NCBI GenBank assembly: GCA_964036155.1
Contig: OZ038422.1
Location: 36,913,201 to 36,977,200, forward strand
Source of the DNA: Diploscapter coronatus
Taxonomy: Eukaryota; Nematoda; Chromadorea; Rhabditida; Rhabditidae
DNA length: 64,000 nucleotides
Reading direction: 5' to 3'
Shown here: piece after piece, positions 9,668-58,700 of the stretch
How positions within the stretch are numbered: the stretch's first letter is position 1
Layout of the letters: each line of letters begins with the position of its first letter
Program-made: the position numbers and the translations under genes
Notes under the pieces: model-generated
The model's database searches: none
What the model was told of the DNA's origin: nothing
What the model saw: only the letters and a program-made list of their open reading frames with translations

Positions 9668-13442
<3,775 letters not shown>

Positions 13443-15238: not shown

Positions 15239-15294
15239 CCGTCCTCGCCTCGGCAGCTGCAGGCAGCAACTCGTCATTCCCAATTCACCCCAAC

Positions 15295-15310: not shown

Positions 15311-15390
15311 AACATTCTCGCCTTATTTCTGTTCTGTCCCATTCTTTTGCTCATTCACTATAAAACACCAATAAATCGATTATTTTGTAA

Positions 15391-35088: not shown

Positions 35089-36666
35089 CGAGGCTGAAGT
35101 TATGGGTGAAAATAAGATTTCTCGAATAAAAAATCCTAAAGAAAGTGAAATAGAATTGAACCCAGAACCAAAACGACGAATGTCTAGGCTGTGGTTTAGT
35201 AATCGAGGGAATGCGTGATGACAATCAATGGATGACATGTAGGTGACCGGTGGTTTATGAGTAGCACCTTCACACCTTCGATTACGATGGATTACAATCG
35301 CCATTTGTTAGAGACTCACTGTTTCTCTATTCAATTCACTCTCCCTTTCCTGTCAGTGCCGTCTAACGGACACTGTTCATTCCGTCTATATCTTCTTTCT
35401 CTCTATTTATATTGTTTTCTTTCTTCCACCACTGACTATTGGTCAGTTATCATCCCTTCTTCTTCGACCAGCAAGTCTAATCTAGGGACCGTCAGCCATT
35501 TTGCCAAACTGACCCCACCGCGCTGATTTACCCATGGATAGACAGGTCATTGGGTCCTGCATCCATTTCCGATGAGAAAGAGATTCAAGAAATTATTTTA
35601 AAAACAAGACCGAAACGCAAAAACTGAAAATCACTCAGATTCGTAGGGTGAGCTAGAGACGCATAGTTTGCATTGCCTCTCGCCTCCCTTTCTTTTCCTA
35701 CTTTTGAGAATCTTTTTCTCTGCACTCTTTCATTTCAGCATGGGCTTATTTTATATTTCGCGGATTATCAGGATCTCAGTTGCGGATCCTAGGATTTTTC
35801 TGACTTTTATGTCAGTAACAGTGGACGAATAGATTAATCATTTCATTAAAAAATTTTATGTATTTCTTTTATAGCTCGAAATATTAGCATTGTCGTAATT
35901 GACGCTCATTTGTGGACTTCTTTCTCACCCAATCAATAAATCGATATCGCCACGTGAAAGAGCGGTATCGAATTGTATAGTAGGCACCGATAAATTATTA
36001 AAAACAAAAATAAAACAAGAAAAATCGACGATAATCGGAAGGGTTGTCCAGCTATGGACAATATTGAATCAAGTGAAAGGGGTGGGGCTTGGCGGTCCCT
36101 AGTTAGTAACGTAAGAATCAGAATTTCGTGACCCATATCTAGAATGAAAAATGCCAAGATATTTTGAAGAAAGCTATTGCCAGAAATCAATCAGCAAGAA
36201 AAACTCGAATCAATTCTGCAAATCGGATCCAAAATCTCTAGGATTTTTTCCCAGCGTGAACAATCTCAAGATTCGAAGAATTATCGGTGAATGATCCCCA
36301 AACAATACACGGCCTGTCAAAATAAGGGAAAGTGGAGTATTCGTTCTGAGCATGCGCTCGCTTTGCATGTACTCATTGTTTATCCTTTCAATTGTCGATT
36401 CTCTTCGTTTTTTCACTAATTATCGTTAACTACTTTAATTGGAGTTATTTTATCAAATTTTTATTGATGAGGTTTGTGAGGATGATCTCGAGAATGTTGA
36501 GCCATTATTCATGGCATTCGAGCGAGTTGAATCCTTATTTTGCGCGATGGGGAGGGAATTGAGAGTGAGGAAGGCTCGAGTCAACGTATTCTTGTGCACC
36601 ACTTGACGAGTCGTGGTCGCTGAAATTGAAAAATGAGATAAAATTGTAAACTTGAAAATTACTTAT
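35089..36666. other. intergenic, broken duplication and repeat
   Basis: The first 220 bases repeat the F-box copy B upstream sequence (17713-17935). Similarity then stops at about 35310 and resumes only at 37777. The middle carries the repeat at 36076-36305 and a short palindrome (TCGATATCG...CGGTATCGA, about 35940). No gene is supported. Confidence 0.5.
36076..36305. repeat. dispersed repeat, partner 29222-29425
   Basis: It begins with GAAAGGGGTGGGGCTTGG and a GGTCCCTAGTTAG stretch, followed directly by the AACGTAAGAATCAGAATTTC block shared with the copy near smc-3. Confidence 0.65.
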
Positions 36667-37237
36667 CTAACGTCGCGGACGTGCAGCGTACCCGAGGTCG
36701 CGCAGTCTGGCACCAAATTCGATCATCTTATCGCCGTCCCTGAATATCAACACGAGGTTGAATGCCGCCATTTCGATTTGCCCGCCAGAATTGTTGATCC
36801 CCTAAAAAGAAGAAATTGAATAGGTGTGAGAAAAGATTAAAAGCGCGAGGAAATAAAAAGTAAAAGCAACTAACCATCTGGCGCATATCATAGATCGTCA
36901 TTTTGTTCCGATACTGGCCCAGAGTAACACTATATTCCTTTTGCGGTCCATGTTCGAAGTCGATGAGCGGCATGTCGTTGGCGTCGTAGATTTCGATCCC
37001 GACTGCATGAACGTCAATGGTAGCAGTGTCCGGAACTTCAAGAGTCGCGCCAGTAACTGGAAATGGCATGGTTGGAGATCTGAAAACAGTAGAATGAGTG
37101 AACGATCGAAAATACATGCGAAGTGAGCTTTGAATGAAAGGGTACAATTATGCAAATTTTGGTTTGACTTACTCATCGTTCTCAATTTTTAGTTGATTTA
37201 ATTGATCAGTCAATTCTTTTTTAATATTGGAATCCAT
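36667..37237 (-). CDS. unrecognised compact protein, 134 residues
   Basis: Three exons (37237-37173, 37079-36875, 36801-36667) join with matching phases. The N-terminal 21 residues (MDSNIKKELTDQLNQLKIEN) look like a short coiled coil. A folded domain follows with 'ATIDVHAVGIEIYDANDMP', 'FEHGPQKEYSVTLGQYRNK' and 'FNLVLIFRDGDKMIEFGAR', ending in basic YAARPRR. The pattern of alternating hydrophobic strands suggests a small beta-rich domain. No signal peptide or membrane segment is present, so it is probably cytoplasmic or nuclear. I do not recognise the family. Codon use and clean splice sites argue for a real gene. Confidence 0.7.
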
Positions 37238-37480
37238 TTTTATAGTTTGATCAAATAAATAGTTGGAATGTAGCTGCAAATAGTTGTTCTGTTGACCTCT
37301 GAAGACTGTCGAGTGCTGTGTAGGACGAGGAAGGAAAGTTGATGATGACAGAAATATTTATTAATGAGATTTGAGGGTTTATATAGTGCTCGAGGGTGAG
37401 ATATCTAGGGATAGATATGCAATTCTTGGAAATTGAGATTTACCATACATTTCATACTCTAATTCAAATAAGTAGAAAAT

Positions 37481-37553
37481 GGCCTGTGGTAAAAGACGCC
37501 CACTTTTTAGAGAGCGCACAACTTTGAAAAGTGGGTGTCTTTTACCACAGGCC
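37481..37553. repeat. 27-base inverted repeat hairpin
   Basis: GGCCTGTGGTAAAAGACGCC(CACTTTT) at 37481-37507 pairs with AAAAGTGGGTGTCTTTTACC(ACAGGCC) at 37527-37553; one position differs (a G-T pair), and the loop is 19 bases. It lies in the promoter region of the compact gene. ACGGCCTGT also occurs at 36308. Confidence 0.85.
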
Positions 37554-37776
37554 GTAGAAAATAGGTAAGGAAAGACAAAATAGACATGAATAGACACAAA
37601 ATGAGCAGCAGAAAAACTATTTTTTTTTTAAGGTTTTTGCCTATTTTAAGGCGGAAAATAGCTTTAAAAGGGATGAACCTTAAGTGATTTTTTGGGTAAA
37701 TATGGGTGCACCAGAAACGTCATATATATACTACTATGGTCGATTTTTTGGGGAAAACTCGGTCTTCCAAAAATCG

Positions 37777-39236
37777 GAAAGAAAGTGAAATAGAATTGAA
37801 CCCAGAACCAAAACGACGAATGTCTAGGATGTGGTTTAATAATCGAGGGAATGCATGGTGACAATCAATGAAGGATGACGTGCATGTGGGCAGTGGTTTG
37901 TGAGTAACACCTTCACACCTTCGATTACGATGCATTGCAATCGTCATGTTAGAGGCTCACTCTATTTCTCTATATTTTGTGATTCTTCAAGCCCATTTCG
38001 AGTTACATCATCAGAAAACATTGAAATTCTCCAACTTCTTTATTCAATTCTGAGATTGAGTCAATTGTAGAGGTTGACTGGGAGATGTGCAGAGAGGGGA
38101 TGAGTTGAGGAAGGAGATGAGTGGAGTGGAGGTGGCAGAGTGCAGTCCGTCTGTCTGTCAATCAGTCAGTCGGAGAGAGTTCAGCAGGTCTGCGCGCATG
38201 GCTGCGGCTGCCTGAACATTCTTTCTTTCATTCATTCCATTCATTCATCTTTCTTCATTTTACCTTTGCTGGATCTCCTGGATCTGGCCGATTTGGTGGA
38301 TTTGCGAGAGCTCTTCTTGTTGCTCTTTCTGGCTCTGCCCATCGACACAAATCGTCCCCTGGCGTCTCTGAGTCGAGTGGCCGTCTTCCTGCCCTTTGCC
38401 TGGTCCTTCTTCGAGCGAACAGATCCGCTTCTGCTCGAGCGACTGCCACTGCTACTTCTGCTACGGCTTCCACTGTGACTGCGGCTGCGCGACTTCCTGA
38501 ATCCATTTCTTCGTAAATTCACTTTTCACTCATTATTTTAACATTCCGTACTTGTTATATGATTTTGGATGTAGAATAGAGGAGTTTAGGAAAACTGTCA
38601 GATAGAAATGGCCATTTTTATGAATAATGAAGGTCAACTTTTGATATGACCCTTTTCGCCTAAAGAGCAATGGATTCCCTCTTCCAAAACTCACAAAGCC
38701 CTGCGCGCGGCTCTGCTGGAGCTCCTTTTGGCAGTCGTTCTTCTTCTTCTGCTTCTGCCCGAGCTCGAGCGCGTTGCAGAGCGTCTGCTGCGGCGGGAAG
38801 AGGTCGATCTGCTTCGGCTGCGACGTGCAGAGCGGGAGCGGGCGTGGCGAGTTGTGGATCTACAAGCAATGCATTAGTTCGATTGATTTTGGACTTTGTG
38901 AAGCCTTTCGAACAGAGTCAGGTTAGAAACTTTAAAATGAAGGATAGGTTGACGAGGACGGATGTCGTCATTCGAGGTTATTCATTTTGTAGTTGTCAAT
39001 CTCGAGTGACATGATTTCCGTGATTTTTTCTCAACTTCTGTTCTTCTTCTCTGCAGCTTTGCTCACTTCATGACTGGTCAGTTGCCTGGTTGGAGCCGGT
39101 CTGCTGGTCGAGTGCAGTTCAGTTAATGAGGAATCTCCTCAACCGACTGCTTATATAGAGGGAGATATCGCATTTTAGATAATTGCATGCTAAATTTTCT
39201 CATAATTATAAGAATGCATTCAAATTTCTTATGCAT
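37777..39236. repeat. segmental duplication, unit 2 (partner 17762-19226)
   Basis: It begins abruptly at AAAGAAAGTGAAATAG and carries only the upstream part of the F-box gene, so the F-box coding region is missing here and lies instead at 31.9-35.1 kb. It ends soon after the basic-protein TATA box. Confidence 0.85.
38241..39071 (-). CDS. Arg/Ser/Lys-rich basic protein, copy 2
   Basis: Same three-exon structure as copy 1: ATGAA (39071-39067), 38859-38695, 38496-38241, 141 residues. Exon 2 differs by about one residue. In exon 3 'SSRRSRSPHSKKDQ' becomes 'SSRSGSVRSKKDQ' by loss of one codon plus substitutions, and 'FVKMGGARKS' becomes 'FVSMGRARKS'. The reading frame, five-base first exon, splice sites and TATA box (39150-39157) are all kept, which supports a functional pair. 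A role in packing sperm DNA is inferred from composition, as for copy 1. Confidence 0.72.
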
Positions 39237-40030: not shown

Positions 40031-43000
40031 TTATCTTGCACCGAAGACCTGCATTCCGACTGAACAGCAGCTCTTCAAGGCGGGCAGAAAAGAGGAGACC
40101 TCGACGAAGTCCCCACCAACCCGAACCATCTGCCCAGTGATCATCTGCGCCGCACGGAACTCACCTCGAGTCAGCAGATCCGCAAACTGATACAGGAATT
40201 GACGCGTTTGCAGAGATAGCTGAAAGATGTAAGTCAAAATTGAATAACTCTTGGTATTGCTATTTGTTTAGAACGATTCATTGAGAAGAAATAGGCAAAA
40301 TTCGTATACCTTTCCAGCAGCCAGTCGAGGCGACAACTCAGTTGCAATGCGACGCTGGATGTCGCCGACCTTAGTCAGAGTTGCCTGAAAATTGAACATT
40401 TCTCGATTGCCTGTGTTGAATAGATTGAATATAATTTGAAAATCTTTCTGTCTCTGTAAAAATGAAGAATGTCAAAATTTCGAGGAAGGACAAATGATGA
40501 TCTGAATAAAAACGAGAGAAAATTTCAATTATCGAAGACAAGTGGTTTCGAAGAATTCCGTAATGTCGATGTAGGTTGTGTTCAGGAAAAAAAACGTTGG
40601 TTTCGATTCCGATATTTCAGGTTTTGTCTTTCAAATTTCAACTTCGGTCAGTCACTATCTGATTATGAAATGGGGATCAGATGATTTAAAAATGTCTGTC
40701 AAATGACTCCAATTTCAAGATTCCTTACTGGCTGTGGATTAGCTGCCTGAATCGCTGCTAGAACTTCGTTGAGTTTGTCGATGATTGGCTGGTCCTCTGC
40801 TGACAATTGCACCTGGAACGAGAGGAGTTTTGAGTAAATAATTGACCTTGTTTGAAAAGTGCATGCGTCATATATTCACAGCCTAGTAACCTTTAATTTT
40901 TAGAAAATTCGAGGGAAAACGGGAGGTGAGTTATTTCTTTCCTTCGCGTACTGTTAAGGATGTACGTTAGACGCATTCAAAGAATAAGGCTTGCAAATTC
41001 CTTCATTTGGGAGGTTATATCTAGTTTTCCCTCTCTATCAACACTTTCGCGGATGAAAAGTATGAACCTTCCAAGAAGGCAGCAAAACGCATAACATACT
41101 TGAGGAATAGCAACAGCAGCAAGAGGCGCGGGACTAAGACTGGCAGTAGATGCAGCGTCGAATGCTGAAGGGGATGGTTGAACCGAGCTGGGGACTGCCA
41201 CTGTGGGTTGTTGATTGTAGAAATTGCTGGATGCAATGCCTGGATGCTGATACGAGGGCTGCTGTGGCTGCATGCTGCCCGGGTTCCATTGAATCTGAAA
41301 ATGTCACCTACTTCGCAGGTTCGATAAAATTATGAATTTTGCGAAATTTCAAATGATACCACATTTTCAGAGGAAAAGTTGGGGGTTGAGAGTGATTTGT
41401 ACGAAAATATACGAGGAAAGCCCCAACAATTTAAAAAAAAAAAAAAAAAATCACTCCCTTTGTGGTACAAATCGCTTCCAATCCGAAAAAAAAAGTTTAG
41501 CTAAAATTAAATCAAATGCTTTTTCTTTCTGTCAAGAATCATCAGATAAGTGTTGAAGGGAAAAACTCCTCCTACCTGCATGACATTAGTCGGTTTCGGA
41601 GAATCAGTCTTTCTCTGGACGGGAGGGGGATCGTTCCATCCCGATGTCGAGTTCCTCGTTGGTGGAGGAGCTGTGTTGAGAGGAGGCTGAGATGGGAGGG
41701 CAGGAGAGGGCTGCTGAAAATGATGTAAAAATGGATCATGTTCATTTTGTGTTATCGCTGCCCTCAAGTTACTCCTCTTATCCTTTTGTAGTTTTCACCT
41801 CCTTTTCTGGAGTACAGTATGGAGAAGAGAAAAGAGTAAGAACAACAAAAGGGTAAAGGTAACATGAGCCTAACTAGTGCAAGAGGTAGTAATTACGACG
41901 AGTGTGTTAGCATGATGATCCTATATCTAACTCATATATATATATAGAGATAATAGAGAGTACAGCGAAAAAAATGCAAACTCACCATGTATCCATTAGC
42001 AGAAGGCGGGGGCATTGATGCAAATTGTTGATTCATTGCAGAGAACTGCTGATTGTGAGAGAGAGGTGGAGGCTGAACTTGATTGACTGAAGGAGTCATT
42101 GGGGCGGAGGGCATTTGACCATAGGCAGGTTGCATTGGAGGGGGAGGAACGCCGTAATTCGACACTGGCTGCTGCTGAAACCATTTTTAACCCTTGTGAA
42201 TTTATTTAGAAGAGAAGTCAGATCTATCTCTTTTGAAGTCAGGCAATGTTGGTAGCGGCTAAAATGGCCCCATCTATGCCGAAAGTCGTTCCACTTGCAA
42301 TTGTAAGCTTTAAAGACGATATGGTACGACGCGCTAAGATCAAGGATGGATCACTTTGGGCGCTGTCGTCAATTTTTTTTTTAAAGATAAAAGAAAAATA
42401 TTTCTAAGAGAAGTAGGGCGATAAGAAATCGAAGTTGCCCACGTCTTTCATTTCATCATTCGCAAAAGTGACTGATTTGAATCCAACCTGATATTGACTG
42501 GGATTAGGATAGCCGCCCTGTGGAGGCATTCCGAATGCAGACCGACTGTTTGCAGACGCAGTTGCGGGAGGAGTGAACGGCTCGGAGCGGCCATAGGAAA
42601 TTGAGCCTCTCGGTCCTCCACTAGCTCCCATATTTGTCTGGCGATAGCGAGACTGAAATTGCAATCAGATAGATGAAAAAAACTATAGGTAGAAGTTATT
42701 TTTATACAGGATAAAACTCGAGAAGAAAATTCCGAAAATAGTGTTGCACTATCACGACGAAGTTGTTGTCTCTTATGAACAGATTTTCTCATAAATGGAG
42801 ACGAACGTACGAACTCACATCGGATTTGAGTGCAGCGATGAGATTGGCCCGCTCGACGGGGAGTGCGGGCAGCGTGGGAGGTTTGCATTTCGTACCCTCG
42901 AAGCCACCCAAAGCCTCGTAAATTGCATAGCGGAAAGCGCCGAATTCCTGCAAAATCACATTTTTGATGATATCAGTTTTGATTGCTAAACTGTGTCTAA

Positions 43001-44530
43001 GAGTACTTTTTTCTTCCAAGTGTGAATAGAATCCTACCAAAATTGGAAGTGAGTACACTACTCTTCTGGAGCGACATTCCTCGTTCAGTCTTAGAATAAA
43101 AGTGCTCGTAGTCACTTTACACATAGAAAGTCGAAGTTCTTTTCGTGAAAAGTCAAACCAATCACATCCCCTCACCTCATCTTCAGTGTCGACTCCTCGC
43201 ATCAACCGAAATGCAACTTCCAATTCTCCACTTGCGACGATTTGCTGAGCGTATTCATACAGAACCTGAAAATGAAGAGAATAGAGAATGAGATTGAAAG
43301 AATTACTGATTTACCTTCGGATAGACACGATTTCCCTTGGAAATTCCCCTGGAATGGTTGAGAGCGACACGAAGTGCGACGGCCTGCAGAATGCGAATGT
43401 CCAACTTGAGAGACTGATTGGCCTCCAGAAGGAGGTCTACATCTCCACACATTATGGCTGGGAACGTAGCTATCAGGCCTACTGTAAAATAGGGCATATC
43501 AACATTTTGGTTCCGATATAAAACGTTTACGTGGCGTGCTTGAAAATTGTGTGAGAAATTTTCAACCCCGTTTTATCAATGAAAGAGAAAAGCTACTACT
43601 GTGCGTACCATTTTGTGCAATCCATTCCTTAGCCAATGCCTGTGATCCCTTTCCGACGTTGTGATGTCGAGACAGCAGAAGGGCGAGTTTCCTCTTCCAT
43701 TCGCGATTTGGACAGGAACTCAGCAGCTGAAACTTGCACTGGATAAATCCAAGTTTTTAACATTATTAGTTTTTGAAACTCACATTTTTGACGCCTTCGC
43801 TGCTATCTGCATAGGCAATGATTCGGGAAGAGACTGTTAGATTCTCTGAAGCATTGACAGTAAATGAGTGAAGAAAAGATGGACGAGAGTACCATTCAAA
43901 TATGCCTGCAGAACCTGTTTGAAGAGTTTCGGTCGATGAGAAGCGTAGACAAGGGCAGAGGCGTAGTCTTTTCTGAAGTTTGAATTTGTTAAAAATAAAT
44001 TTCTTTATTGCATTGACTTACTTCTCCAACAATCCAGCAATCAGCGAGTCGTCATCATTCGCGATGAGTTGGTCGACAATTTTCCAGGATTCCACATCTG
44101 CAAACCACATAATATTAGAGGATCTAAATAGCGCTCATGTTGCCTCACAATAAAGCTTAATAATTCAAGAAGGCAAAGATAGAAGGTGAAAAGAACGAGA
44201 AAGTGAATAAAATAGCATTAAGCATAGATGATGAACGGTAGACCACGTGTCAGCCTTTGAAAGACGAAATGCAAAATGATAAAATTCTTAAATTTGGCGA
44301 AATGATAAATTGACAAAATAACAACGTAAGATCAAAGGAGGAAAAATGTGTGAGGAAGGGAAGCATTCTGCCATTTTGTCATTTCGCTAAAATCAAGAAA
44401 CCACTTTATCATTCCATCTTTTCCAAACTGTCAAATCGCGTTGCTTTCGACTGTGAATAAGAATGAGCCAGTGAATGGAAGAAGGTTTACCCAGGTGATT
44501 CCAGTCGATGGGCGGCTGGTTGGAGAACAC

Positions 44531-44578
<48 letters not shown>

Positions 44579-47500
44579 CCTAGCCTTATTATTCCCACTG
44601 GGTGGGGTCGGCTACCCTCAAGCTCGTAATGAAGCTCAGCCTTCTTATTGGGACAGTCGGCCTATCCTAGCCACACAGGACTAGTGGCCCGTCCCGAGGA
44701 CAGACTGTTGTTGTGTACAACAGCCGAGGGATTTAGGCTAATTTTTCGTGGTTTGATCCACTACCAACATTTCTTAACCCCCTTGGTTTGGGTGAGGGCG
44801 GGGGCCGAACTTGAGACCCTAGGCTGCAGGCAGTAACACACAACCACTGCGCTACGCCGCCCCTGGTTGGAGAACACGTCTTCGAATGAATCGGAACAGG
44901 TCGAAGAGGAAGAACTCGTTCGAGCTACCTGGAACGGGAATATTTTGATTATTGTTTTGAAAATTTATTTGAATGATGATCAGTTTTAGATTGTTAGGAG
45001 ACAATCTTGATTTCATTGTACCTGCTAGAAACATTAGAAACAAGAGGTAGAAGAATCAACCATTACTTTCAAATGAAAAATATGCAGGTTTTCATTGCAA
45101 ATGAATGAAGGAAGAAAAACTTACAGTAGAAGGATGTGTTGGATGACTGGGGAGAGATGCATTTTGTCTGTTGATTGCTTCTGCAGTCAACACAGAATTG
45201 GAGTTGGCTGCGTCAGAGGAGTCGAGATTTTCAGAAGGACGATGAGAATCTGCAAAGAATGTTGGAATGAGGTAAGAGAATATCAGAGAAAGACGCTTAC
45301 AACATCCAAGAAGCTGAATGAATTCGGAATAATCGGGTAAGTTGTCGATATCCTTTCGCAGAGACAGAAATCTCCAGATCAACTGCTCTTCTTCACTGCC
45401 TGCCTCCATTGATCTGCAAGATTTTCTCGATAGAAATAATGAGGTTCAGAACGAGACAAACCGATTGTTGCAGTATTCAGTGAGAACCTGCGAGTCGCAG
45501 GCTTCGATCATCTCCTTCATCGGCTGACAGAAATTCGGATCACCGGGAATCTGAAATTGAGCATAACGGAATGTTGAAAGATGAAACGCTTATGAATTTT
45601 TTTTTAAAATAAAATCTTTAGCAAACTTATGCACTCCATAACTTTGAAGATAAAAATTAGCTAAATTTTCTCGCTTATCATGCCTGATGCGATAGAAAAA
45701 GTCGTCCTTCTTCAATAACATTTTTCGCAGATGAATTGCCTACCTTTTTCAATTCGACATTGTACGTCCATGACTGTGTGGAATCGTCCCATTTCTTGTA
45801 GTAAACAGCCATCTTCCCGCCGATTGCAAACGAAGCTCCGACAGGCGCCGCTCCCACCCACGCAGGTACCACATTCAACTGCACAGGGTGACTTGAAGTC
45901 GACTGAAAAGATGCAATATGTGGAACGTTTTAGAGGGAATTTGCAAATCGCATCACATAAAAATGGGTGAAATAGTGTAGAGAATGTTAGGATACGATCT
46001 TTTTTCACATTATTCTTCTATGTCTTTGTGTCACGATTTACTCCGGTTTACGTATTCTCATTAAGAAAATCAAACCTCTTCTGCAGAAGAAGCGATGGGC
46101 TCGATAGAGCTGATCTGAATGGGGTGCTGGAAGTACTGGATGGCCAGCAGGTCGGGCTTAGCTCGATTCCACGAAATCGATCGGATCCAATCACCCTCAA
46201 AAAGAATTATTTAATGAATAAAACCTGTCGTCTTCAGCTTTTTCTAGGAAATATCTGATTCATTCACTCTAAATGCAATGATGTGCTCGAATTTTTAGGT
46301 GATGCAATAATGACAAGTAACACGATTCCTGCTTTATTTGCTGCATTTTCAATGAATGAATCTAGCATATTCCAAAGCTTAAGCTAATACACAGTTAAAC
46401 AGGTCAAACTTCACATAATTAGAAACGTTTCTAACAAGAACTCTGCAGTTTGTCGAAATTGAAACTTTACAATAAATCTGAAGATCTTCTAATTCTTATA
46501 AAGCTCAACTGCTGATACATTTTCATCTCTTCCTAAACTCACTTTCCTTGTTTTCTTGCAGTTTGAACTGTTTACAACTTTGATAAAGGATATTTCTCGA
46601 GGATTTTCAATATTTTAACTCGAAGATCACCTTCTTCATTCTACTACTGAAAGATGATTTTAAAAAATGTTCAGTTCTTTTTAATTTTATTTGTAAGTTC
46701 GTTAAGTTTCTGTACCTGTTCGCATCCAACAGCCCCGATAATCTCAGTCGTGTCAGGATTCGAGATGATCATTTGTCCATCGTGGGAAGCCGTCAGCAGC
46801 ATTCGGGGATCCGCATCGTGCCTAAAATAGCATTGTTTTTGCTATTCTTGAAAATGAATATTATTTTAAGAAAAGTTAAATCTCTTAGGGTAAAGGTATA
46901 CACTTTTCTAAATTTAAACTTTACAATTTATGTTTAATTTCTGCAAATTTAATTCAGGCTACACACAGAGCAATGAAATATCTAAATCAGACTGGTACGA
47001 TTTTCAGCAACATTCTAAGTTCGACATCAAATTCGTCAGAACATGAGTTTCAATAATTACAACTGCATGCTTTCTTTCCTTCTTCAGTTTATGTGCATAC
47101 ACACTTCTTGTTTTAGGCAGTCCAGCCCCGTTAATTATGACAGCTGATATTTAGCAACGCCCAAATGCCTAGAAAATTATATGCCTCTGCGCTGTTATTT
47201 CATGCCTTTCTCACATTCACTAAGTAGATCAAGTTTTTGAAGAGTTTTCTTATCCTCATTCAGACATAGTGAATCTTCTATTACTCTGGACGCACTATTG
47301 AAAGCACTGTATTCAAGAAAATCATCCTAACTTTCAAATGTTCACATGGCGGAACAGGAAACAATCGACTATGAAGAGCTCTACGCGAATTTCAGCAATT
47401 CTCAGGACTTTAGCGTAAGGTGTTTATGAAAAAAGATATCACAGTCGAACCTTTACACCTCAAATAGTAAATTACGATAATTGATCCTTTTTTCAATGCT

Positions 47501-50500
47501 CTCTTATAACTAGTTTCAAAACTTATCATACATACATCTTACACCCTTAATAAACTTCATACGGTTAACTAGATGATAGAAACCATACATGTTCGAGTAA
47601 ATGTTAGGAAAAAAGCCTCATGAAATTTCAGAATTTCGACATTCTAGTCACCGACTACTATCTTCCGCAAGTACATATCTACTTTCCGGTGCATGCGATC
47701 ACTCTCGGGTTCATGCTATTCATGCTGTGGAGTTTGGCGACAAACCCATATCTCCATTCACGACCAAAAAACCTATTTCTCATTAGCTGTTTCTTTTTCA
47801 CAATAGGCGCTGGATACAATATTTCGTTTGATATAGGATATCTCTACTTGAGAGGGAAGACGGTAAAAATCATTAATACCTAAGAAAGAATTTGCTATAA
47901 TAAATTTGCAGCTGAGCGTCCAATCATGTAGCATTGCAACTAGATTAATGAGAAATCCGCTTTCGGTGACTGGAATAGTTGATGCAGTTGATAGATATAT
48001 TGCGATATTCGGAAGGAAGCCACTCAGGATTAGATGGTAACTTCGATATAGTGTTCAGAATTTTCATCTCTATTTCAAGCCATGAAAATATCCAGAAAAA
48101 AAAAACTTAGTGGTGGTCAAAAATTTGAACAATTTATTATTGTGATTATGGACTAGTTTGTCTACTTATTGTGAACCAATTTTAATGAAACTTGGCAATA
48201 GTTCGTAATTCAATGAAATGATCATGTGTGAAAAATGTTGTTCAAATTGATCCACGATCACTGGATCTACCAGATTGCATTCATGATCATAATTGTTTCA
48301 AACTTTCGACCGTCACTGTATTTCGAGTGAACTAGATAAAACTGGGGATGTAATTTGAAAAGATGATTTTAGGATTTTTCTTTTCTACTGCCTGTTTCCA
48401 CTGATTGGAATATGCGGCTCAATCTACGATGTCTTCATATCGACTAACTGGATCACCAGTGACATGATCTGTCTGATCACCAGAAGCAGTGCAACTTTGC
48501 AAGACATCCTTCTCGTCATTCAATGGTTTCAGAAACGATCTTTTCTCGAAAGCAAAGACTTTTGCAGGATTACAATTCTCACAGCGATGGTATTTTATCT
48601 GGTCATCTACAGAAAACTAGCGAAACATACGAAAATGTTGAAGCTGCTTAATCCTGATCTCATGGTAAAATTAATTAAGTTACTACTTTGAGATGAAAAA
48701 TCAAGGTGGATAATAAGTTAATTAGATTTTCGAGATTAAACTTATTGAACTTGCATTTCATCAAGTTTGTGAAATCAAAATTTGCAAATTATACTTCCGT
48801 CCCTAACAATATGGAGTTTAATTTAGAGTAGTTGGAAATAAGCAATATTTTTAGACTCAAGAACGATACTACAGAGACAAGCAAGTCGTCAAGCTGTTTT
48901 TCTTCAGCTGCAGCCTACCCATTTTCCTAGTTCTTCCAAACATGTTGGTTCATGCGGTAAATGACTTGTTTGGAATAAGGCATAGGGTAAACTTCACACT
49001 CCAATATCAAGATTACAAAAAAGACATCTTTAGATGGTAACGCTGCTAAGTTGGGTGCTACTCGATTTAGCAATACCGTTCATATGGTGAGGAGGAAATG
49101 AGAAAATGAAATGAATTGAATCGTTTTAGGGTGGTGTACCTAGTCTTCGTACCATCCATCAAAAACAGGGCCCGCGACCTATGCAACTGCGCTCCTCAAG
49201 TCACGAATGTTTCAGCCTTCACTACGCCGGCTCAATCCTCAACAGCTATTTGAACTTCCCTTCGTTCCACTGCGAAGCCTAGCACGAACGTCATAAAGTC
49301 ATAACGTCATAAACATAAACTCATTAAACTCTGCCTCTGGGCCTCGAATAAAGACTAGCCCGATTCATATTCGCATTTGCTTACAATACACACACAATTT
49401 ATTCATATCCAACTAATAATTATGGCAGGTGATATTTAGAAAACAGCGAAATGTTTAAAATTGCATGCCTCGCTTCGTTTTTTCCTATTCGCAGGATTAA
49501 TCAGCAATTTTTATAGGAAATTCTCATTTGCTCTAACTGATTTTCCTATTTCCTCCACCATTTACTCATTTCTAAAAGTCTGTATTCACAAGAATCGACA
49601 TTAACTTTCAGTTCCAGTTGAAATGGCGGAGAATGACATAGATTTGGACAAGCTTTATGAGAATTTTTCGGAAAGCGGGAAACATTTTGACGTAAGTAGT
49701 TCAGAAATAGATGAATGCCTAATTTATCTGGGAAGTCTTCAAATCATTTCATCTTCCATTGTCACGATTCTATGACAATTTCATTTGTCATCAGATAGAG
49801 AGAAGATCTTGGAATCGTTGAATACAAGAACGGCTCAATTTCACATTATGCTTCAGCTCTATTCCGTTAGCTCTAATTTAAAATTGAAAGTGATTTGAAG
49901 TTGTATTTGTAAAAATGTTCTGGGGGGAGTTGAAGAAGCAATTTGGCGATTATTAATTTGCAAATTTATCATAAGATATTGGGTAAAATGAAAGATGTGC
50001 AAATAGTAGTTAGAGTATGAAAAAAAGAAAACAAAATAGTGTTTCAAGTAATTTGGATAGGAAATTAAAAAAAAACTTTTATGACAAAAATGATAAAATT
50101 ACTTGAAATACCTGTTATCTTGGATTTTAGAATTTTACAATTCTGGTACTCGATAATTACCTATCCGATGTTCACGTCTACCTGCCTATTCACGCTCTAA
50201 CCCTCGTCTTCATGCTATTCATGTTATGGAGTATAGCAACAAATTCATATCTCCATTCACGACCAAGAGGTCTATTTTTACTCAACTGCTTCTTCTTCAC
50301 ATTATGCGCTGGATATAATATTACGTTTGACGTCGGATATCTCTATTTGAGAGGGAAGACGGTAGGAATAATGAGATTTTCTTATCATTTTATCCGAGAA
50401 TTTTGTAGCTGACTGTACAAACGTGCAGCACTATCACTCGATTCATAACGAATCCTCTATCAGTGACAGGAATTGTAGATGCAGTCGACAGATATTTCGC

Positions 50501-53500
50501 CATATTTGGAACGAAACCTTTGAAGATTCGATGGTAATCACAAAATTATCAAATCAAGCATGAGAATGCTCGCAATCTAGGATACTCCTGTTCTACTGCG
50601 CATTTCCTCTGATGGGCATACTCACCTCTGTTTACAATACGTGGATTTCGAATGAGTTTGTGAAAGACGACATGATTTGTCCGATAGCCCGAGGCAGCGA
50701 GGCGACCAAGGGAGTTCTGTTCGTCATTCAATGGATTTCGATCATTTGCGCTATGATTTTCTACTTTGTCATCTATCGAAAGTTATCCAAACACGCCAAA
50801 ATGCTCAAACTCATCAATAAAGATCTTATGGTAGGAAAAATTCAAAACTACTCAAAGAAGAAGTTTCCTTCAGACCCAAGAAAGATACTATCGCGATAAT
50901 CGCGATAAGAAAGTTGTTCAGCTTTTCTTCATCTCGTGTTGTATCCCGATATTTCTAGTCTTTCCGATTATTCTGATCTACATAGTGAATTTCTTGTTTG
51001 AAATAAGAAACAAGGTAGGGAATTTTAACTTATTATATGAAAAGAAGGTAATTCAGTATGTAACTCTAACAGGATGGGTGCTACTCGATTCGACAATACC
51101 ATTTATCTGGTGAGATTTAATGCTCACCTACAATCTCAGTAACATTTTAGGACCGTCTATCTATTTTTCGTACCGTCACTCAAGAACAGGGCCCGTGATC
51201 TTTGCAATTGCGCTCCTCAAGTCACGAATGTCTCAGCCTTCGCTTCACCAGCTCAATCCTCTTCTGCCATTTGAAAAATGCATTTCTACTTGAAAATAAA
51301 GAAATTTCCTTCAAGTCTTTCGAAATCCAGTTATTTTCCCAAACTTATAAGCCATAAAGAGTTCTGCCACTATTCAATAATGTCGTCGAATCTGAATCTC
51401 TAAAGAAGTCATAAAATGCAGGCATTTGGAGGCAATTTGTAACAAGAAGCAGAAATGCATGTGCTATTGCAGAGTTAGCCATCTTTTTCTCAAATTAATT
51501 CACTTGATTTACAATTTTTCAAAGAAATTTCATGTTGCCTCCGTGCGTTCTTACTGATTGTGAGACCAAAAACCGACTAATTCTATAGTCATTTGCGTTT
51601 TGATTCCAGATTTTCAAAATCAAGATTCTTTCAATAAATCCCCCTTTCCCTATCATTATCAGCAGATGTCAGAAGATTTGCAGTGTATAATTTTCCAAAT
51701 GGTAGTTATGCACTATTTGAAGAGAATTGATGGTGAAAGGTCGAGAGTTGAGAAGACGTCAAATTATTGAAAAAGTTGAGTAGTGATAATAATTACAGGG
51801 GATTAGCGAAATGTCTGATTTACGCCCTATCAAAATGAATTACCACTTTGAAAATTACATAGGAGATAGCTTGAACTTTGAGCCGATGTAGATCATTTTA
51901 AAACAAATTTTCTAAATATGCTCACCAATCAACAGCAGAAACTCCCTTCTGATGGAGTCTGAGGTCCTTGAGCGGAGCCGTGGCAAATCGCAGATCCCAT
52001 CTTTGCACGAGGGGCAGAGCATCTGATTGACTGCACAGAATCAGACTCGACGCGTCCGTTGGATTCCAGCTCAAGCCATTCCAGTCACAGCCACTTCCCA
52101 GCTGAAAATTGGTTGAATCAGACAAAGTTCTGATACATTTAATGGATAATCTTGAAGAGAGAAAGCTGTGAATAATACTTGAAGTCTAAATTGCATGAAA
52201 AAATGAAGAACTCAAATAATTCAGAAATGAAATGCACGATTTTATAAAGAAAGATCTGATCAGCACATGAAAGATTCAAAAGAATTTATTTTCCTACTTA
52301 AAAAAGTCGAAACAAACCTCTCCAAATTCGATGATTGGTGCACCAGGTCTTCTCAAGTCATAGACAGAGCATCTGTGAGAAGAAATGCAAGCAGCAATCT
52401 GATCAGCTTTCTTGTTCCATCGCACCATTTTGATCTAAAATGAACGACTTTGAAATATGATAATAGAATTGGGGGAATTTTGAAATGCGACTAGAAATTT
52501 TGTCAGGAACGACAACTTCAATGGTGTGATTTATTTCGTTGAAATTCGCCAACCTGGTCAGGATAATTTGGTTTTCCAGGTGAAAAAGTGGAGAAATTAG
52601 TCAGATCCCAGAGCAGAAGTTGACCCGATCCGCCTCCGGAAAGCAGCCAGCGGGAGTCCTGAGAATGAGCCACTGACAGCACATGGCCTTGATGGACTCG
52701 CTGTGCAGACAGGATATTCGCTTGTGATTCTGGAAGAAATACGTGATTGTGCAGTATTCCGAGATTTATATCTCTTGCACATCCACACTTCTGTAATCCA
52801 CAGGGTTGTCTCTGCAGTTCGAACAAAATCGAACTTTAACTGAACTGGACTTCCAAGGCAGTTCGAAGTTCAGTTCAGTTCGAACTGCCTTGGTATATAA
52901 TCCACGGATTGCCTCTGCACAAAACCTTATAATCGCGCAAAAACTGGGACGTAAAACAAAAAAAGACGAAGTGACTTTTGTCAAGTGATACTATTTCATT
53001 TTGGAAAAATGCAATCAACCCTACATTTGGGGGAAAAATACTCGATCATATTTTAACCACCGAAAGATCATGGATTTAGTTTACGGAAAAAAAATAAAAC
53101 TTTTAATCTAGAAACTGACTGTTGATGATGGAATCAGCATCCAAAAACACAACCGACCCATCCTCCGTGCCACCCGCCACGATTCCGAGAGAATGAGCAG
53201 AAGAAGCCGAATATGACCACGACAATTCATTGAATCTGAAAAAGAAGGAATGAAGGCGATTTTTTACTGCAAATGATTGACAAACTTTGAAAACAACGTA
53301 TTTTTGTTGGAACTCCTGGATCAATTTTCATGAACTAATACGATTCTGATATAATTTCTCTCATAAAATATGCAATGTTTCTGACAATCAGTCAAATCTA
53401 TTCCACGAATACTGATTATTGAATGACTACAAAAATAAAAAAAAAAAAAGAAGAAAAGTTTCCTCCTTCATTCCTTATAATTTATATTTTCAGCCATTTC

Positions 53501-53998
53501 ATGAAGGAATCGCAAGAATTCGAGGGACAATATTTATCTTATCCTTATGAGAAAAGTATGCAACTTGAAGAACGACGCCAACCTGTACTGAATTGGGACA
53601 GAAATGGAAGGGGTAAGTCGAGAGGACGAATAAATACTGTCAATGGGCAGGAACTCGATGGAACTGCTCACATTGGCTGAGGTGGGGTCGAAGTACTGGG
53701 CAAAGTCTGCCACAATCAGACCCTGAAACTGGGTTCGATAAAATAGTCGACAAAATGTGCAGGATTTATGGAGCTGACTCGAGAGTTATGAAGAAGGGCA
53801 AGATGATTATTGCGCTTCATGAAAGTTTTGGAACTAGTTCACTTCAGAATATTATTCCATTTTTTGTCGGGGGTTTTTTTCCTATTTAGCAGCATAAATA
53901 AATTCTTCATAATAATGAGGAAAAGAAAATACCTTCGGCTCGACTCCAGTCGGGCTCCACGCAAATACACCCAGACGAGAATAGGTCTTCGAATGCAT
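40031..53998 (-). CDS. sec-31: COPII outer-coat protein SEC31, interrupted by a SINE
   Basis: About 27 exons. The start (53998) reads 'MHSKTYSRLGVFAWSP', matching the SEC31 N terminus. WD-repeat exons follow: 'GIVAGGTEDGSVVFLDAD', 'LLSGGGSGQLLLWDLTNF', 'NGLSWNPTDASSLILCSQ', 'VQRWDLRFATAPLKDL' (exon 6, 52101-51926) and 'LLTASHDGQMIISNPD' (exon 7, 46821-46716). After the propeller come alpha-solenoid exons ('YASALVYASHRPKLFKQVLQ', 'QNSALAKEWIAQN'-like) and Pro/Gln-rich linker exons (about 42.7-41.1 kb). The conserved C-terminal helices end at 'FVEVSSFLPALKSC'. SEC31 with SEC13 forms the cage on ER-exit vesicles. Exon 13 (44928-44491, 'SDSFEDVFSNQPPIDW') is split by a SINE that adds a stop. Without it, this exon is in phase with both neighbours. 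Intron 6 hosts two receptor genes on the other strand. Confidence 0.9.
44532..44862 (-). mobile_element. tRNA-derived SINE with long poly(A) tail, inside a sec-31 coding exon
   Basis: The plus strand shows 47 T (44532-44578) followed by a 284-base body, so the element runs on the minus strand with its tail last. Near its 5' end are an A-box-like TAGCGCAGTGG (44854-44844) and, about 33 bases further, a B-box-like AGTTCGGCCCC (44811-44801), the internal RNA polymerase III promoter of tRNA-type SINEs. It is flanked by perfect 16-base direct repeats CTGGTTGGAGAACACG (44516-44531 and 44863-44878), the mark of target-primed retroposition. The unbroken tail and perfect repeats indicate a recent event. 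No other full copy is present in the window. Confidence 0.93.
47346..49253 (+). CDS. 7TM receptor 1, nested in sec-31 intron 6
   Basis: Eight exons (47346-47414, 47632-47862, 47912-48036, 48373-48525, 48568-48664, 48855-48986, 49034-49086, 49130-49253) join in phase into 327 residues. Seven hydrophobic segments are visible, including 'AITLGFMLFMLWSLA', 'FLISCFFFTIGAGYN', 'FLFYCLFPLIGICG', 'ITILTAMVFYLVIY', 'FFFSCSLPIFLVLP' and 'LLDLAIPFIWVVYLVFV'. 'DAVDRYIAIFG' after TM3 is DRY-like, and the acidic N terminus precedes TM1. These features fit the nematode chemoreceptor-like GPCR superfamily; I cannot assign the subfamily. The C terminus is short ('NRARDLCNCAPQVTNVSAF'). The paralogue lies just downstream on the same strand. 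Confidence 0.85.
49623..51274 (+). CDS. 7TM receptor 2, nested in sec-31 intron 6
   Basis: Seven exons (49623-49691, 50131-50361, 50409-50533, 50581-50830, 50874-51014, 51057-51109, 51151-51274) give 330 residues. Exons 1, 2, 3, 6 and 7 equal those of receptor 1 in length. Matching motifs include 'RGLFLLNCFFFTLCAGYN', 'DAVDRYFAIFGTKPLKIR', 'VIQWISIICAMIFYFVIYR' and the identical 'NRARDLCNCAPQVTNVSAF'. The exon holding TM5 is single here, where receptor 1 has an extra 42-base intron. The upstream regions also match (TAATTATG(A/G)CAG(C/G)TGATATTTAG at about 47136 and 49420), so the promoter was duplicated too. A GPCR role in sensing small molecules is inferred from the superfamily. Confidence 0.85.
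52853..52893. repeat. perfect 15-base hairpin in sec-31 intron
   Basis: CCAAGGCAGTTCGAA (52853-52867) and TTCGAACTGCCTTGG (52879-52893) pair perfectly around an 11-base loop. TAATCCAC...TCTCTGCA-like words appear on both sides (about 52792 and 52899), possibly an imperfect target duplication. Additional GTTCGAAC/GAACTGAAC words extend the symmetry. Confidence 0.75.
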
Positions 53999-55793
53999 CG
54001 CTGATCGACTTATTCCACTGATCCCATTCAACGCGTTCGTCTGAAAATGACATTTGAAGAAGAAATAGCGATGAGTTGAAATGAGACAACGCAAAATCGA
54101 CATGTTGGCAGAGACGACACGTTGCACCTGTGCAATCTTCGGGATAAATCGATAGGTTTTCAAGAACTCGGAAGTAGACAGATCGAATAAAAAATAAAAT
54201 TAGACGCAAAAAAGAGGGCAGAGCCAAAAATGCAAATAAATAAATAGAGAAATCGAGAAGAAGCTAGAGAGCAGGAAGGATAAACAACGTTGACAATCGA
54301 ATAAGTTCGGATCCAGAGCGTGGCAGAGCTGTCCTGGAATAGCTGAGTGGATAGAATACACGTTCACACCAAAAGCCGAAAAAATAATACGAAAATGCCA
54401 CCGGCAAAGTGAAAATGATCGTGCTCAAGTTTCGCACTTGTTTTTTTCCGCAAGTGGTTGCTCATTTCAAATTCGTCATTTTCCGCTTGTTTTCTTTCGT
54501 TTTTGATCAGTTTTGAATTTTCGCGTTTCTTCAAGTGACAATTTGTCAGCGTCAGCTAGAAGCAGCGACTTGCGACTCGATGACGCGGTTCAATTTCGAG
54601 GTGGGCTGATGAAGGTGTTCGCCAAAAGTTCCTGAAGATTTTTCAATTTTTTTCAACTCCCAAAAATTCGAGGACATTTTAGGATCAAGTTCAGAAAACC
54701 TTTGGGAAATTTCGCTATTTTTCTGCAAAAGTGGAAATGTTTTGCAAGATTTAAATTGTGACCAGCCATTGTTTATGGCGCCAGTCTCGCAGCGATGCAC
54801 TGCGCAGAGAAGGAGAGTGGGGGAGAAATAGCGTGCAGGAGCGATCGATATCGAGTGGCCCTGTTATCCTCAATTCTCATTGCTTATTTCTCCCCGCGTT
54901 TTGGTGGTGATCGGTCGCTTCCTCCTATTCTCTAACCAGTCAATTGCCTGTGCCAGGTCGGTAATTAGTTTCCCATCAACCACTTGCTCTAATTGCCTGA
55001 TTACTGCATTTCTGCTGACTGCTGAGTTGTCCTAATTGCGTGCATAATCATCGTAGTGGTAATGATCATTCGGGTGGTGGCTGTGTAGCACCAATCAACC
55101 AATCAGAACAACTTCAATAGACACTTGGTCACGCTAGTCATTCATTCATGCATACACCCTTCCATCCTTTCACTTTCATATCGTCAGCTCTTCATTCATT
55201 CTTCAGCATGTTTCTTCACTCTTCATTCGCGAAATTTCTACGCCTCCTCTAAATTCGTTCCTTTCTCTCCGAGAAAGCTTGTGAAATCCCGAACATTTTC
55301 GAATTTCTCTTCCCATTTCGACATTTCGATTTCGATATGCATGGCGTGAAATACCGTTTCCTTTCGATTGAGCTTCGTAATTTCTGTAATTCCATGTGAA
55401 GGCTTATGGACTAGGCGAACACACTTACTTAGTCGTTCCTTTAGTTTGATTGTACTGTTCATAGCTAGCATCTAGTAATTATGTATTTTTGAATTAACTT
55501 TTCCGAAATATTAATTTGATATTGATTCGAGCGGAACCGAATCACGTTTTAGACGATTTAGATTCAGCAATGAGTATTTTTATTGGTTTAGGTGACTGAC
55601 TAGAGAGTTCTCTTGACGTCTACTTCTAAGACTAGGCGTTGCATAGAAGAAGAAGCACAAACTCACTGACTCAGAACACAGAGCGCGTAGTGCAGTTGAC
55701 ACTTCAGTTGAGGGGTAACATTCTCTATCGACCACTTGTCATTCAAGCACATTTTTGTCTCTTCTAGAACAAAACAATCACAAGCGTAGTGAG
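53999..55793. other. divergent intergenic region, sec-31 and hrp-1 promoters
   Basis: About 1.8 kb between two divergently read genes. An upstream acceptor (near 54042) and a 5' non-coding exon for sec-31 are likely. CCAATCAACCAATCAG at 55090-55105 holds two CCAAT-type words. No supported coding exon is present. Confidence 0.5.
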
Positions 55794-58700
55794 ATGACCA
55801 CCGAAGGAACTGAGATTAAGGTTCATAGTTTTGAGTTTTCATTAATCCTCAATTCATTTAGGTACTTTTCAAGGTAACCAAATCTAAATTCAAATTAAAC
55901 CTAAGAGTAGAGTGAGTGAGTAGGTTGTTGTAGTGCTCTGTGCATCGATGCATTCAGGCATTCAAGCATTCAAGCGCTGTAGCCTCTCATCATTCAAACT
56001 AAACAGCCATTTTGAGAGTAGTAATTAATTCTGCTATCTAAACCTCATCAAATCTGCCAATCTGTTGGTTGTGCGATTCAACTCCTTCCGCCTTTCCTCG
56101 AAAATATTCCAACTTTCAGTCTGTCGACCAGGAAAATGGCACCAAGCCGCAAAATGGCAACGGAACTGAGACTGCTGCCAGTGGAGAGCCGGAGAACTTC
56201 AGGTGGGATATTAAAAGTGAAGAAATGTCTTCAAATGCTGCAGATTTTAGAATGAATTCTTGATTTATGTAAGTATTGTAAGAAAAATAACACACAGACT
56301 AAATTACAACGAATGAAGATTGAGACCATTCTGTCCTGCAACATTTGTGAACAACGATTCTGAAACATCAAGTTCATAAATTATGCTAAATTTTATGGAA
56401 AAAAGCACTTTCCTACTATATCCATTTCTTGCGGTCTTGTGATTTCCGAATAGCTTTACAAACTTTTTTTAAATCATTATAAAAGTGAAGAATGATTTTC
56501 AGGAAGATATTCGTGGGGGGACTGACCTCGAACACGACGGATGAGATGATGCGGGAGTTCTATGGCAAGTTCGGGGAACTGACCGATGTGATCGTCATGA
56601 GGGACCCCACCACGAAGAGGAGCAGAGGATTCGGCTTCATCACTTTCACCAGCAAAGCTTGTGTAAGTGGAGAATAAATTGAAAAAAAAAAAACAAATCT
56701 CGGCCAAATATCAGACAAATTGAACCCATGCGAAATTCCGTGTATTCGAGAAATCTGCGAAAATTGCATTGAAGATGTGTCGGGTGTTCATCCTGCATTA
56801 TTTCAATTCTATCTTATTGTTGATGAACAGATCAGATTCTGATGTTTGTCACGTGGTTTTGATTTCTAGCTTTAAGAGCGATTTCTGCAGTTATTTCAGA
56901 GATTCATGTAGTGAAATGAAGAAAGTCAGAACGTCATGTTCAGAATATAGTTTTCATTCATTTTCTACTGTAATTCAATTGAGCATTAGTTTTTTTCTTC
57001 AGGTGGATGCTGCGATGGCTGCCCGCCCGCACACGATCGACGGGAAGCAGGTGGACCCGAAGAGGGCTGTGCCGAAGGACGACAAGAACAGGAATGAGTC
57101 GAATGTGTCCACCAAGAGACTGTACGTGAGTGGAATTCGCGAGGAACACACCGAGCAAATGCTCACCGACTACTTCAAGAAGTTCGGCAATGTTGTCAAG
57201 GTAGGAGAGTTTTCCTGTTACCTGAAAGACAATGAATGTCGACAAAAATTGCAAACTGGAATTCTTTCAAAGCATCTCCTTCGCTAGATTCCGGCTATTT
57301 TCTTTCTTGAAAAAAGCAGTGATCTTTTCAAATAAGCAACGACGTGTAGTCCTCTAAATTTCACGGGTTTTTGTCGCCACTTTCAATGAATCATGGATTT
57401 ACAAATTTCGATAAGAATGTTGGATCCAAATTTGAAAACTATTCACATTGACGTCCTTTCTGTATTTATTCTAAATATCGACTTTGAGAACAATTCACGA
57501 GTTTCAGAGCGAGATCATCCTGGACAAGGCGACGAGTAAGCCTCGCGGATTCGGCTTCGTGTCGTTCGACGACTACGACCCCGTGGACCAGTGCGTTCTG
57601 CAGAGAAGTCACATGATCAGCGGCTACAGATGCGATGTGAAGAAGGGGCTCAGCAAGGACGAAATGAACAAGGTAATCGAGCAAAGAGGAGGGCAAGAGA
57701 TTCTATCTTTTAAGGGATTTAAGCAGCAGCAGCGAGACATGGGCAACAGACAGGGACGCTCTCGCGGACCCGATCCTCGTGCTGGAGGCGGTAAGCACAA
57801 TTCAAGCATAGCACTACTCGATGGAGTTAGGGTTGAAAGAAGGAAGGGGCGGAAACTGAATTTAACTCCCAACTCGCTAAATTATATAAATAAATGAGTA
57901 ATAAGAGCTTTTCTAGGAGGTGCTGGAAATTGGCAGCAGTACGGAGGCGGTAGGATTGCTTTTCTTAACAGCAGCTAACCTAATGAGATTAGAAGAAGCT
58001 TAGTTTTTAGATAGAGAGAAGAAACGAGATTATTCTGAAAGAGATTCTTTATATTTTGCTAACCGCCGATAGAGAATTTCTATTTATGCGTTTATGAAGG
58101 TGTCGAATTGAAACGAATATTGCAGGTGCAGGAGGACAGTGGCAGGGCCAGGGACGTGGAGGCGGTCAGAACTGGGGCGCTGGAGGAGGAGGAGGAGGAT
58201 ATGCAAATTACGGCGGCCAGGGTGGATGGGGCGGCGACGCAGCGAGCGGCTACGGAGCATATCAGGGCCAGCAATGGGTGAGTTCTTGATCTTTTTCATA
58301 CAAAGAATTTTTTTAATTAAAAAGTAAAAAATCAATTTTAACAACCAGGGACGGGAAATGTCTCGAATTAAAAAAATTCAAAAACGGAAAGACAAAGACT
58401 CGCTTTTCGACATTCCAAAATCAAAGGCAAAAATAAAGCTTCCAACTTAATTTTTCTCTGAACTACTGAAACCCTAGAGACATATTTTCAAGTGACAAAG
58501 ATAAAGCCTCTCTCGCCTCTGTTAAAATGATGTCTAAGATTTTTTGCATTTGATTTGTAGAAAGAAATTGTTGAAATCGAGTCAGTTGTTGCTGTAGAAT
58601 TCTTGCATTTCGACAATTCGGAAATGCCACAATGTTGTTGCAACTTGAAGGGATAGCATGGAAAAGTGGGAGATCATCTCTCTACCGTCTGCTCATCCTA

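What the first reader, a model, noticed from the sequence alone, without database searches (positions are those of the whole stretch)
44516..44878. Young SINE sits inside a coding exon of sec-31
A 331-base tRNA-type SINE with an unbroken 47-T tail is flanked by perfect 16-base target duplications. It lies in the exon encoding SDSFEDVFSNQPPIDW. Removing the SINE plus one repeat leaves 91 bases, exactly in phase with both neighbouring exons; with it, a TAG follows within about 30 codons. SEC31 is usually essential, so the insertion is either heterozygous, spliced out, or tolerated. The second repeat copy ends CCAACCAG, a usable acceptor, and GTGGTTGTG in the SINE could act as donor, joining in frame and adding six residues (GRRSAV).
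Basis: partly seen in the sequence, partly recalled or inferred. Interest (0 to 1): 0.88.

Follow-up and report, generated by a model that had tools for sequence, protein, structure and literature searches.

The report
Jumping gene disrupts one sec-31 copy
A very young short jumping element has landed inside a coding exon of the secretion gene sec-31 on one of the worm's two chromosomes, while the partner chromosome keeps an uninterrupted copy, and the element's family tree suggests that it came from that partner chromosome.

Summary
Confirmed: 44532-44862 is a SINE (284-base body, 47-A tail, minus strand) between perfect 16-base repeats, in exon 14 of a 28-exon sec-31 model. The genome (169.7 Mb: two ~85-Mb contigs plus a mitogenome) looks like a phased diploid, probably the one-chromosome parthenogen Diploscapter. 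The homologous contig C2 has sec-31 with the empty site, so the insertion is hemizygous. Read-through on C1 adds 33 codons, then TAG. Apart from the insert, the C1 frame is open and as constrained after the insertion as before it (overall dN/dS about 0.11), so the insertion is recent. Splicing rescue is not supported: its acceptor scores below all 27 modelled acceptors. Likeliest: a C1 null or strong hypomorph covered by C2.

New: the body is identical to 7 C2 copies. Its subfamily lies 23 of 25 on C2; two other young groups are private to one chromosome; 7 of 7 C2 copies tested have empty C1 sites. Best reading: a C2-type SINE jumped into C1 after two separately evolved chromosomes met, which bears on the open question of Diploscapter's heterozygosity. 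Against a clean story: another SINE type is identical on both chromosomes. No reads, RNA or relatives were available.

The parts
44863..44878 (-). first copy of the 16-base target duplication (5' side of the SINE in transcription order)
   Evidence: sequence identical to 44516-44531
44579..44862 (-). SINE body, 284 bases; box A-like TAGCGCAGTGG at body position 9, box B-like AGTTCGGCCCC at 52
   Evidence: 7 other copies identical over 284 bases; boxes, consensus recalled
44532..44578 (-). 47-base A tail of the SINE (T on the plus strand)
   Evidence: tails of 22 near-identical C2 copies measure 8-32
44516..44531 (-). second copy of the 16-base target duplication; its last AG is the acceptor that a splicing rescue would need
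44491..44928 (-). exon 14 of the modelled sec-31, interrupted by the SINE; 91 bases in the empty C2 allele
44761..44763 (-). first in-frame stop (TAG) on read-through, inside the SINE
40031..56640 (-). modelled sec-31 gene on C1, 28 exons; exon 1 (56584-56640) is uncertain
   Evidence: Sec31A match

Best explanation
A transcript of a tRNA-type SINE was copied by target-primed reverse transcription into exon 14 of sec-31 on chromosome copy C1, leaving a 16-base duplication and a long A tail. The insertion is recent and hemizygous: C2 has the empty site. C1 messages run into a stop inside the SINE about half way through the coding sequence and are probably degraded or give a truncated SEC31, so the C2 allele supplies the function. 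The inserted copy is of a subfamily otherwise found almost only on C2, so it most likely jumped in trans once the two chromosomes shared a nucleus. Shown: anatomy, empty C2 site, frame, stop, subfamily placement. Inferred: reverse-transcription mechanism, loss of function, complementation, direction and timing of the jump.
For: Empty C2 site in a collinear allele. Both modelled alleles open apart from the insert, dN 0.0136, dS 0.120, with similar constraint before and after the insertion. Stop after 33 codons. Repeats of 13 bases or more at 67 of 84 copies. 25 subfamily matches: 23 on C2, 2 on C1 (p 6e-6). Window copy nested among 18 C2 copies (support 96/87). Longest tail of the 24 near-identical copies. 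Seven of 7 C2 copies tested are empty at the matching C1 site.
Against: No reads or RNA. The second C1 copy of the subfamily (L034, 98.2% identical, tail of 10) is older and unexplained. SINE type E' is identical on both chromosomes (L068 on C1; L088 and L090 on C2) and the C1 group around L060 differs from it by 1 substitution and 1 gap, so the two sets of SINE sources were not long apart, or exchanged copies. An in-frame splice around the insert exists on paper.
Confidence: 0.72

Rival explanations
1. The SINE is spliced out, or exon 14 is shortened, so that C1 still makes nearly normal SEC31: a donor in the SINE head or the exon 13 donor joins the AG at the end of the second repeat, in frame.
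For: In-frame joins exist with donors at 44877, 44847, 44844 and 44841, and from exon 13 with loss of 22 residues. The region is a serine-rich linker, which might tolerate change (inference).
Against: The acceptor scores -4.7 bits against 0.9 to 8.6 for 27 modelled acceptors; the best of these donors scores 1.0 (weights recalled, partly circular). Skipping the exon shifts the frame.
Confidence: 0.12
2. Both chromosomes have always shared a nucleus, and SINEs return by preference to the chromosome they came from; the window copy is one of the rare trans insertions, and nothing follows about a merger.
For: Type E' is shared between the chromosomes; the short type-B pattern matches 8 places on C1 and 7 on C2; Jaron et al. 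list Diploscapter among very old asexuals (PMC7953838, passages).
Against: No such whole-chromosome memory of SINE RNA is known to me. The 23 subfamily copies on C2 do not depart from an even spread (KS p 0.58) and cluster at most weakly (nearest neighbours, P 0.08).
Confidence: 0.25
3. The C1 contig switches phase here: the stretch with the SINE belongs to the C2 lineage, so the copy sits where its subfamily always sat.
For: The subfamily is nearly private to C2.
Against: Long local duplicates on both sides of the SINE (C1 36.93, 36.95 and 37.16 Mb) are 93-94% alike within C1 against 85-89% for the long matches on C2, though pieces of about 200 bases reach 96% on C2. Queried from C2, 1.5-kb C2 duplicates are 95-97% alike against 89% on C1, while two 0.4-kb C2 pieces are 89-90%. 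Alleles this different are easy to phase. The insertion would still be hemizygous.
Confidence: 0.07
4. Assembly artefact: no real insertion.
For: Long homopolymers are error-prone, so the tail length of 47 is uncertain.
Against: Perfect 16-base repeats, full-length body, and an empty counterpart of the expected form.
Confidence: 0.03

Closest known systems
tRNA-type SINEs with poly(A) tails (non-autonomous retrotransposons)
   Same: Short, non-coding, many dispersed copies, A tail, target duplications of 13-22 bases at 67 of 84 copies, box A-like and box B-like motifs
   Different: tRNA origin is weak (ARAGORN only when relaxed; no Rfam match); partner LINE not identified; no SINE of this kind in Diploscapter turned up in the paper searches made (listings only)
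Disease-type exonic SINE insertions (such as Alu insertions in human exons; recalled)
   Same: Young element in a coding exon of one allele, early stop, intact second allele
   Different: Here in a clonal animal, where the disrupted allele cannot be separated from its partner by ordinary sex; RNA effect untested
Transposon labels of progenitor chromosome sets in allopolyploids (Session and Rokhsar 2023, PMC10235133; abstract and section list seen)
   Same: Young repeat families private to one chromosome set are read as traces of separate progenitors
   Different: Here a diploid with one chromosome pair, one SINE family, and another SINE type shared by both chromosomes
Diploscapter coronatus genome (Hiraki et al. 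2017, PMC5483258; passages and Discussion read)
   Same: 170 Mb, 2n = 2, paired collinear alleles, median dN/dS 0.12; here 169.7 Mb, two large contigs, sec-31 dN/dS 0.11
   Different: It reports 94.3% mean identity of paired sequences; this stretch gives 90.5% with gaps counted. Its authors left the origin of heterozygosity open, leaning to hybridization. The word SINE does not occur in its main text.

Membership tests
SINE | short non-coding element in many dispersed copies | tested here: met
   284-base body; exact 25-base head at 68 places; 7 other copies identical over the body
SINE | target duplications and 3' A-rich tail from reverse transcription | tested here: met
   perfect 16-base repeats, 47-A tail; 67 of 84 copies with repeats of 13 bases or more
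SINE | internal RNA polymerase III promoter | tested here: inconclusive
   box A-like 0 mismatches, box B-like 2 mismatches to recalled consensus; transcription not testable
SINE | head derived from a tRNA (or 7SL or 5S RNA) | tested here: inconclusive
   ARAGORN none by default, tRNA-Cys-like when relaxed; Rfam none at E up to 1
SINE | mobilised by a partner LINE | not tested
   no LINE was sought
SEC31 | N-terminal WD40 propeller of Sec31 | tested here: met
   human Sec31A 7sul E 1.3e-46, yeast SEC31 2pm9 E 2.9e-28
SEC31 | alpha-solenoid (ACE1) and C-terminal part | tested here: inconclusive
   no PDB sequence match at E up to 10 for the 231 residues after the insertion
hemizygous loss-of-function allele | uninterrupted allele on the homologous chromosome | tested here: met
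hemizygous loss-of-function allele | no functional product from the interrupted allele | not testable with these tools
   early stop shown; no RNA or protein data
progenitor-specific transposon label | young subfamilies confined to one chromosome set | tested here: inconclusive
   A: 24 C2 and 2 C1; D: 12 C2; B crown: 7 C1; but type E' occurs on both, the type-B pattern matches 8 C1 and 7 C2 places, and only one SINE family was studied

The most novel reading that the evidence does not exclude
The two chromosomes of this parthenogen lived in separate lineages until very recently: SINE subfamilies with only about 0.3% internal divergence are private to one of them, although the chromosomes differ by about 10% here. 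They joined in one nucleus after those bursts, against the view of Diploscapter as a very old asexual, and the sec-31 insertion is one of the first cross-chromosome SINE jumps after the merger, already removing one copy of a probably essential gene.
Probability: 0.4. Interest if true: 0.75.

Novelty: new member of a known kind. Interest (0 to 1): 0.52.

Why it matters
The insertion is a clean natural example of a probably essential gene (recalled for SEC31) reduced to one working copy in what is likely a clonal diploid. More important, its SINE subfamilies may label each chromosome and date their meeting. Hiraki et al. 2017 wrote that their data could not settle whether D. coronatus heterozygosity came from hybridization, genome duplication or long clonal divergence (PMC5483258, Discussion read). 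Jaron et al. 2020 treat D. pachys as of hybrid origin and name Diploscapter among very old asexuals (PMC7953838, passages seen). Young private subfamilies, and copies that sit on the other chromosome, make the date of a merger directly testable.

Tried and rejected
Rescue by splicing was scored and judged unlikely. A phase switch was tested with local duplicates and judged unlikely. Local hopping as cause of the partition was tested and not supported.

I first took type B as strictly C1-private; its short pattern also matches C2 (8 C1, 7 C2), and only the B crown of 7 copies is C1-only. The first comparison of SINE flanks used a coarse BLAST mode; I repeated it in a finer mode on 168 flanks of 84 copies: one pair matches, a left flank with a right flank over 89 bases at 84%, which is not one insertion shared by both chromosomes. 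The tree used 80 of 84 copies; 4 with short bodies were left out. Empty C1 sites were checked for 7 of the 23 C2 subfamily copies; 5 of the 7 had a single C1 match to the flank, while L002 and L018 lie in repeated sequence, so their C1 partner is less certain (one search scored 40 of 357 candidates). The left flank of L034, the second C1 copy, had no C2 match among those scored, so it stays unresolved. The species name is not proved. Pfam on four ORFs in the long sec-31 intron gave nothing above cut-off. No partner LINE was sought.

Full report
WHAT IS THERE. On the plus strand the order is: 16-base repeat 44516-44531, 47 T (44532-44578), a 284-base body (44579-44862) and the same 16 bases at 44863-44878. 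Read on the minus strand this is repeat, SINE head, body, A tail, repeat. The head has a box A-like TAGCGCAGTGG (no mismatch to the recalled consensus) and a box B-like AGTTCGGCCCC (2 mismatches). ARAGORN reports no tRNA there by default and a tRNA-Cys-like fold over positions 1-74 when relaxed; Rfam gives nothing at E up to 1.

THE GENOME. The window is C1:36913201-36977200 of a genome of 169,703,327 bases in 3 contigs: C1 87.7 Mb, C2 82.0 Mb, C3 13,378 bases. C3 reads as a mitogenome (genes recognised by me, no search answered). Two large contigs that are collinear at this place fit the parthenogenetic one-chromosome Diploscapter: D. coronatus has a 170-Mb assembly of paired alleles and 2n = 2 (PMC5483258, passages and Discussion read), D. 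pachys 157.7 Mb (PMC9071541, passage seen). The species name is inference.

THE GENE. After one exon pair was corrected by eye on splice signals shared by both alleles, C1 (insert and one repeat left out) and C2 both read without an internal stop: 1158 and 1154 residues, dN 0.0136, dS 0.120, ratio about 0.11; the published D. coronatus median is 0.12. The N-terminal propeller matches human Sec31A and yeast SEC31. The SINE sits in exon 14, after residue 564 of the C1 model and past the propeller; the 231 residues that follow found no PDB match by sequence.

EMPTY ALLELE. The C2 counterpart has exon 14 as 91 uninterrupted bases with the target once, one substitution away from the C1 repeat. From window 18835 to 64000 the alleles chain collinearly, 90.5% identical over 40.4 kb of alignment with gaps counted; the first 18.8 kb found no collinear partner in the 70 kb of C2 fetched. 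Constraint before and after the insertion is alike (ratios about 0.09 and 0.12), so the C1 allele has not been decaying for long.

CONSEQUENCE. Read-through gives 33 SINE-derived codons and TAG at 44763-44761; skipping exon 14 shifts the frame and stops at codon 561. In-frame rescue exists on paper, with donors at 44877, 44847, 44844, 44841 or exon 13 joined to the AG before 44515, and a few donors in the SINE joined to exon 15, but the first group needs an acceptor of -4.7 bits where the 27 modelled acceptors score 0.9 to 8.6, and the donors in the SINE score 1.0 at best (weights recalled, and also used to build the model). A null or strong hypomorph on C1 is therefore likeliest; no RNA was at hand.

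THE SINE FAMILY. One search scored 40 of 395 candidates. An exact 25-base head occurs 68 times, 24 on C1 and 44 on C2. I fetched those 68 plus 16 others, 84 loci. Repeats of 13 bases or more flank 67 of 84. Among their 168 flanks no pair marks one insertion shared by both chromosomes. The window copy has the highest flank G+C (0.45, median 0.33) and the highest repeat G+C (0.53, median 0.25) of the set, as expected for an exonic site; the other sites were not annotated for exons.

SUBFAMILY BY CHROMOSOME. Seven C2 copies match the window copy over all 284 bases, an eighth over bases 2-284. A 43-base pattern of this subfamily (A), up to one mismatch, occurs 25 times: 23 on C2 and 2 on C1, the window copy and L034 at C1:80.22 Mb (binomial p 6e-6). 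In a tree of 80 copies, A holds 24 C2 and 2 C1 copies, D 12 C2, the B crown 7 C1; the chromosome label needs 12 changes against 21 in shuffles (0 of 500 as low; near-copies inflate this, and the bootstrap had not settled). The window copy lies in a branch with 18 C2 copies (96/87). The 22 C2 copies at 98% or more differ from the window copy by 0.30% on average, a gap counted as one event, and have tails of 8-32. For 7 of the 23 A copies on C2 I fetched the matching C1 site: 7 of 7 are empty, two of them in repeated sequence.

READING. SINE RNA is expected to insert into either chromosome of a shared nucleus. That A, D and the B crown stayed on one chromosome each argues that they amplified while the chromosomes were in separate lineages; the window copy, A-type but on C1, would then post-date the merger. 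Transposons are used in this way as progenitor labels in allopolyploids (PMC10235133, abstract and section list seen).

AGAINST THIS READING. (1) A second A copy is on C1 (98.2%, tail 10). (2) L068 on C1 is identical to L088 and L090 on C2, and the C1 group around L060 differs from them by 1 substitution and 1 gap, far less than the unique flanks; so sources were shared recently, through gene flow, a hyperdiverse ancestor that split late, or trans jumps in a shared nucleus. (3) The type-B pattern matches 8 places on C1 and 7 on C2. (4) Only one SINE family was studied. (5) A strong same-chromosome bias would mimic the pattern, though the 23 A copies on C2 show no clear local clustering (KS p 0.58; nearest neighbours P 0.08).

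PHASE. Long local duplicates on either side of the SINE are more alike within C1 (93-94%) than to C2 (85-89%), although pieces of about 200 bases reach 96% on C2; the test from C2 gives 95-97% for 1.5-kb C2 duplicates against 89% on C1, with two 0.4-kb C2 pieces at 89-90%. A local phase switch is therefore unlikely, not excluded.

VERDICT. As an event it is a new example of a known kind; its subfamily makes it a lead on an open question about this lineage.

Noticed in passing
window 46822-51925, ORFs on the + strand near 47608-48691 and 50131-50899: The 5.1-kb intron between modelled exons 7 and 8 of sec-31 holds two similar series of hydrophobic ORFs on the opposite strand, which look like nested multi-pass membrane proteins (perhaps chemoreceptors); Pfam found nothing above cut-off.
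   Followed up: partly
window 36106-39179: A 3.07-kb stretch is present on C1 and absent at the matching C2 place, with a 6-base overlap of the flanks on C2; similar stretches lie nearby on both chromosomes.
   Followed up: partly
window 1-18834: No collinear partner in the 70 kb of C2 fetched: possible rearrangement between the two chromosomes.
   Followed up: no
L098:80-5434 (C2:34652080-34657434): 5.3 kb on C2 faces 1.6 kb on C1; local duplicates are more alike within a chromosome than between, as if gene conversion or duplication ran separately on each.
   Followed up: partly
L033 (C1:69.64 Mb) and L036 (C1:35.72 Mb): Copies of the C1-only B crown with identical bodies and long tails (44 and 36 A), so more than one subfamily looks recently active.
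   Followed up: partly
L034 (C1:80.22 Mb): The only other subfamily-A match on C1; its left flank had no C2 match among those scored.
   Followed up: partly
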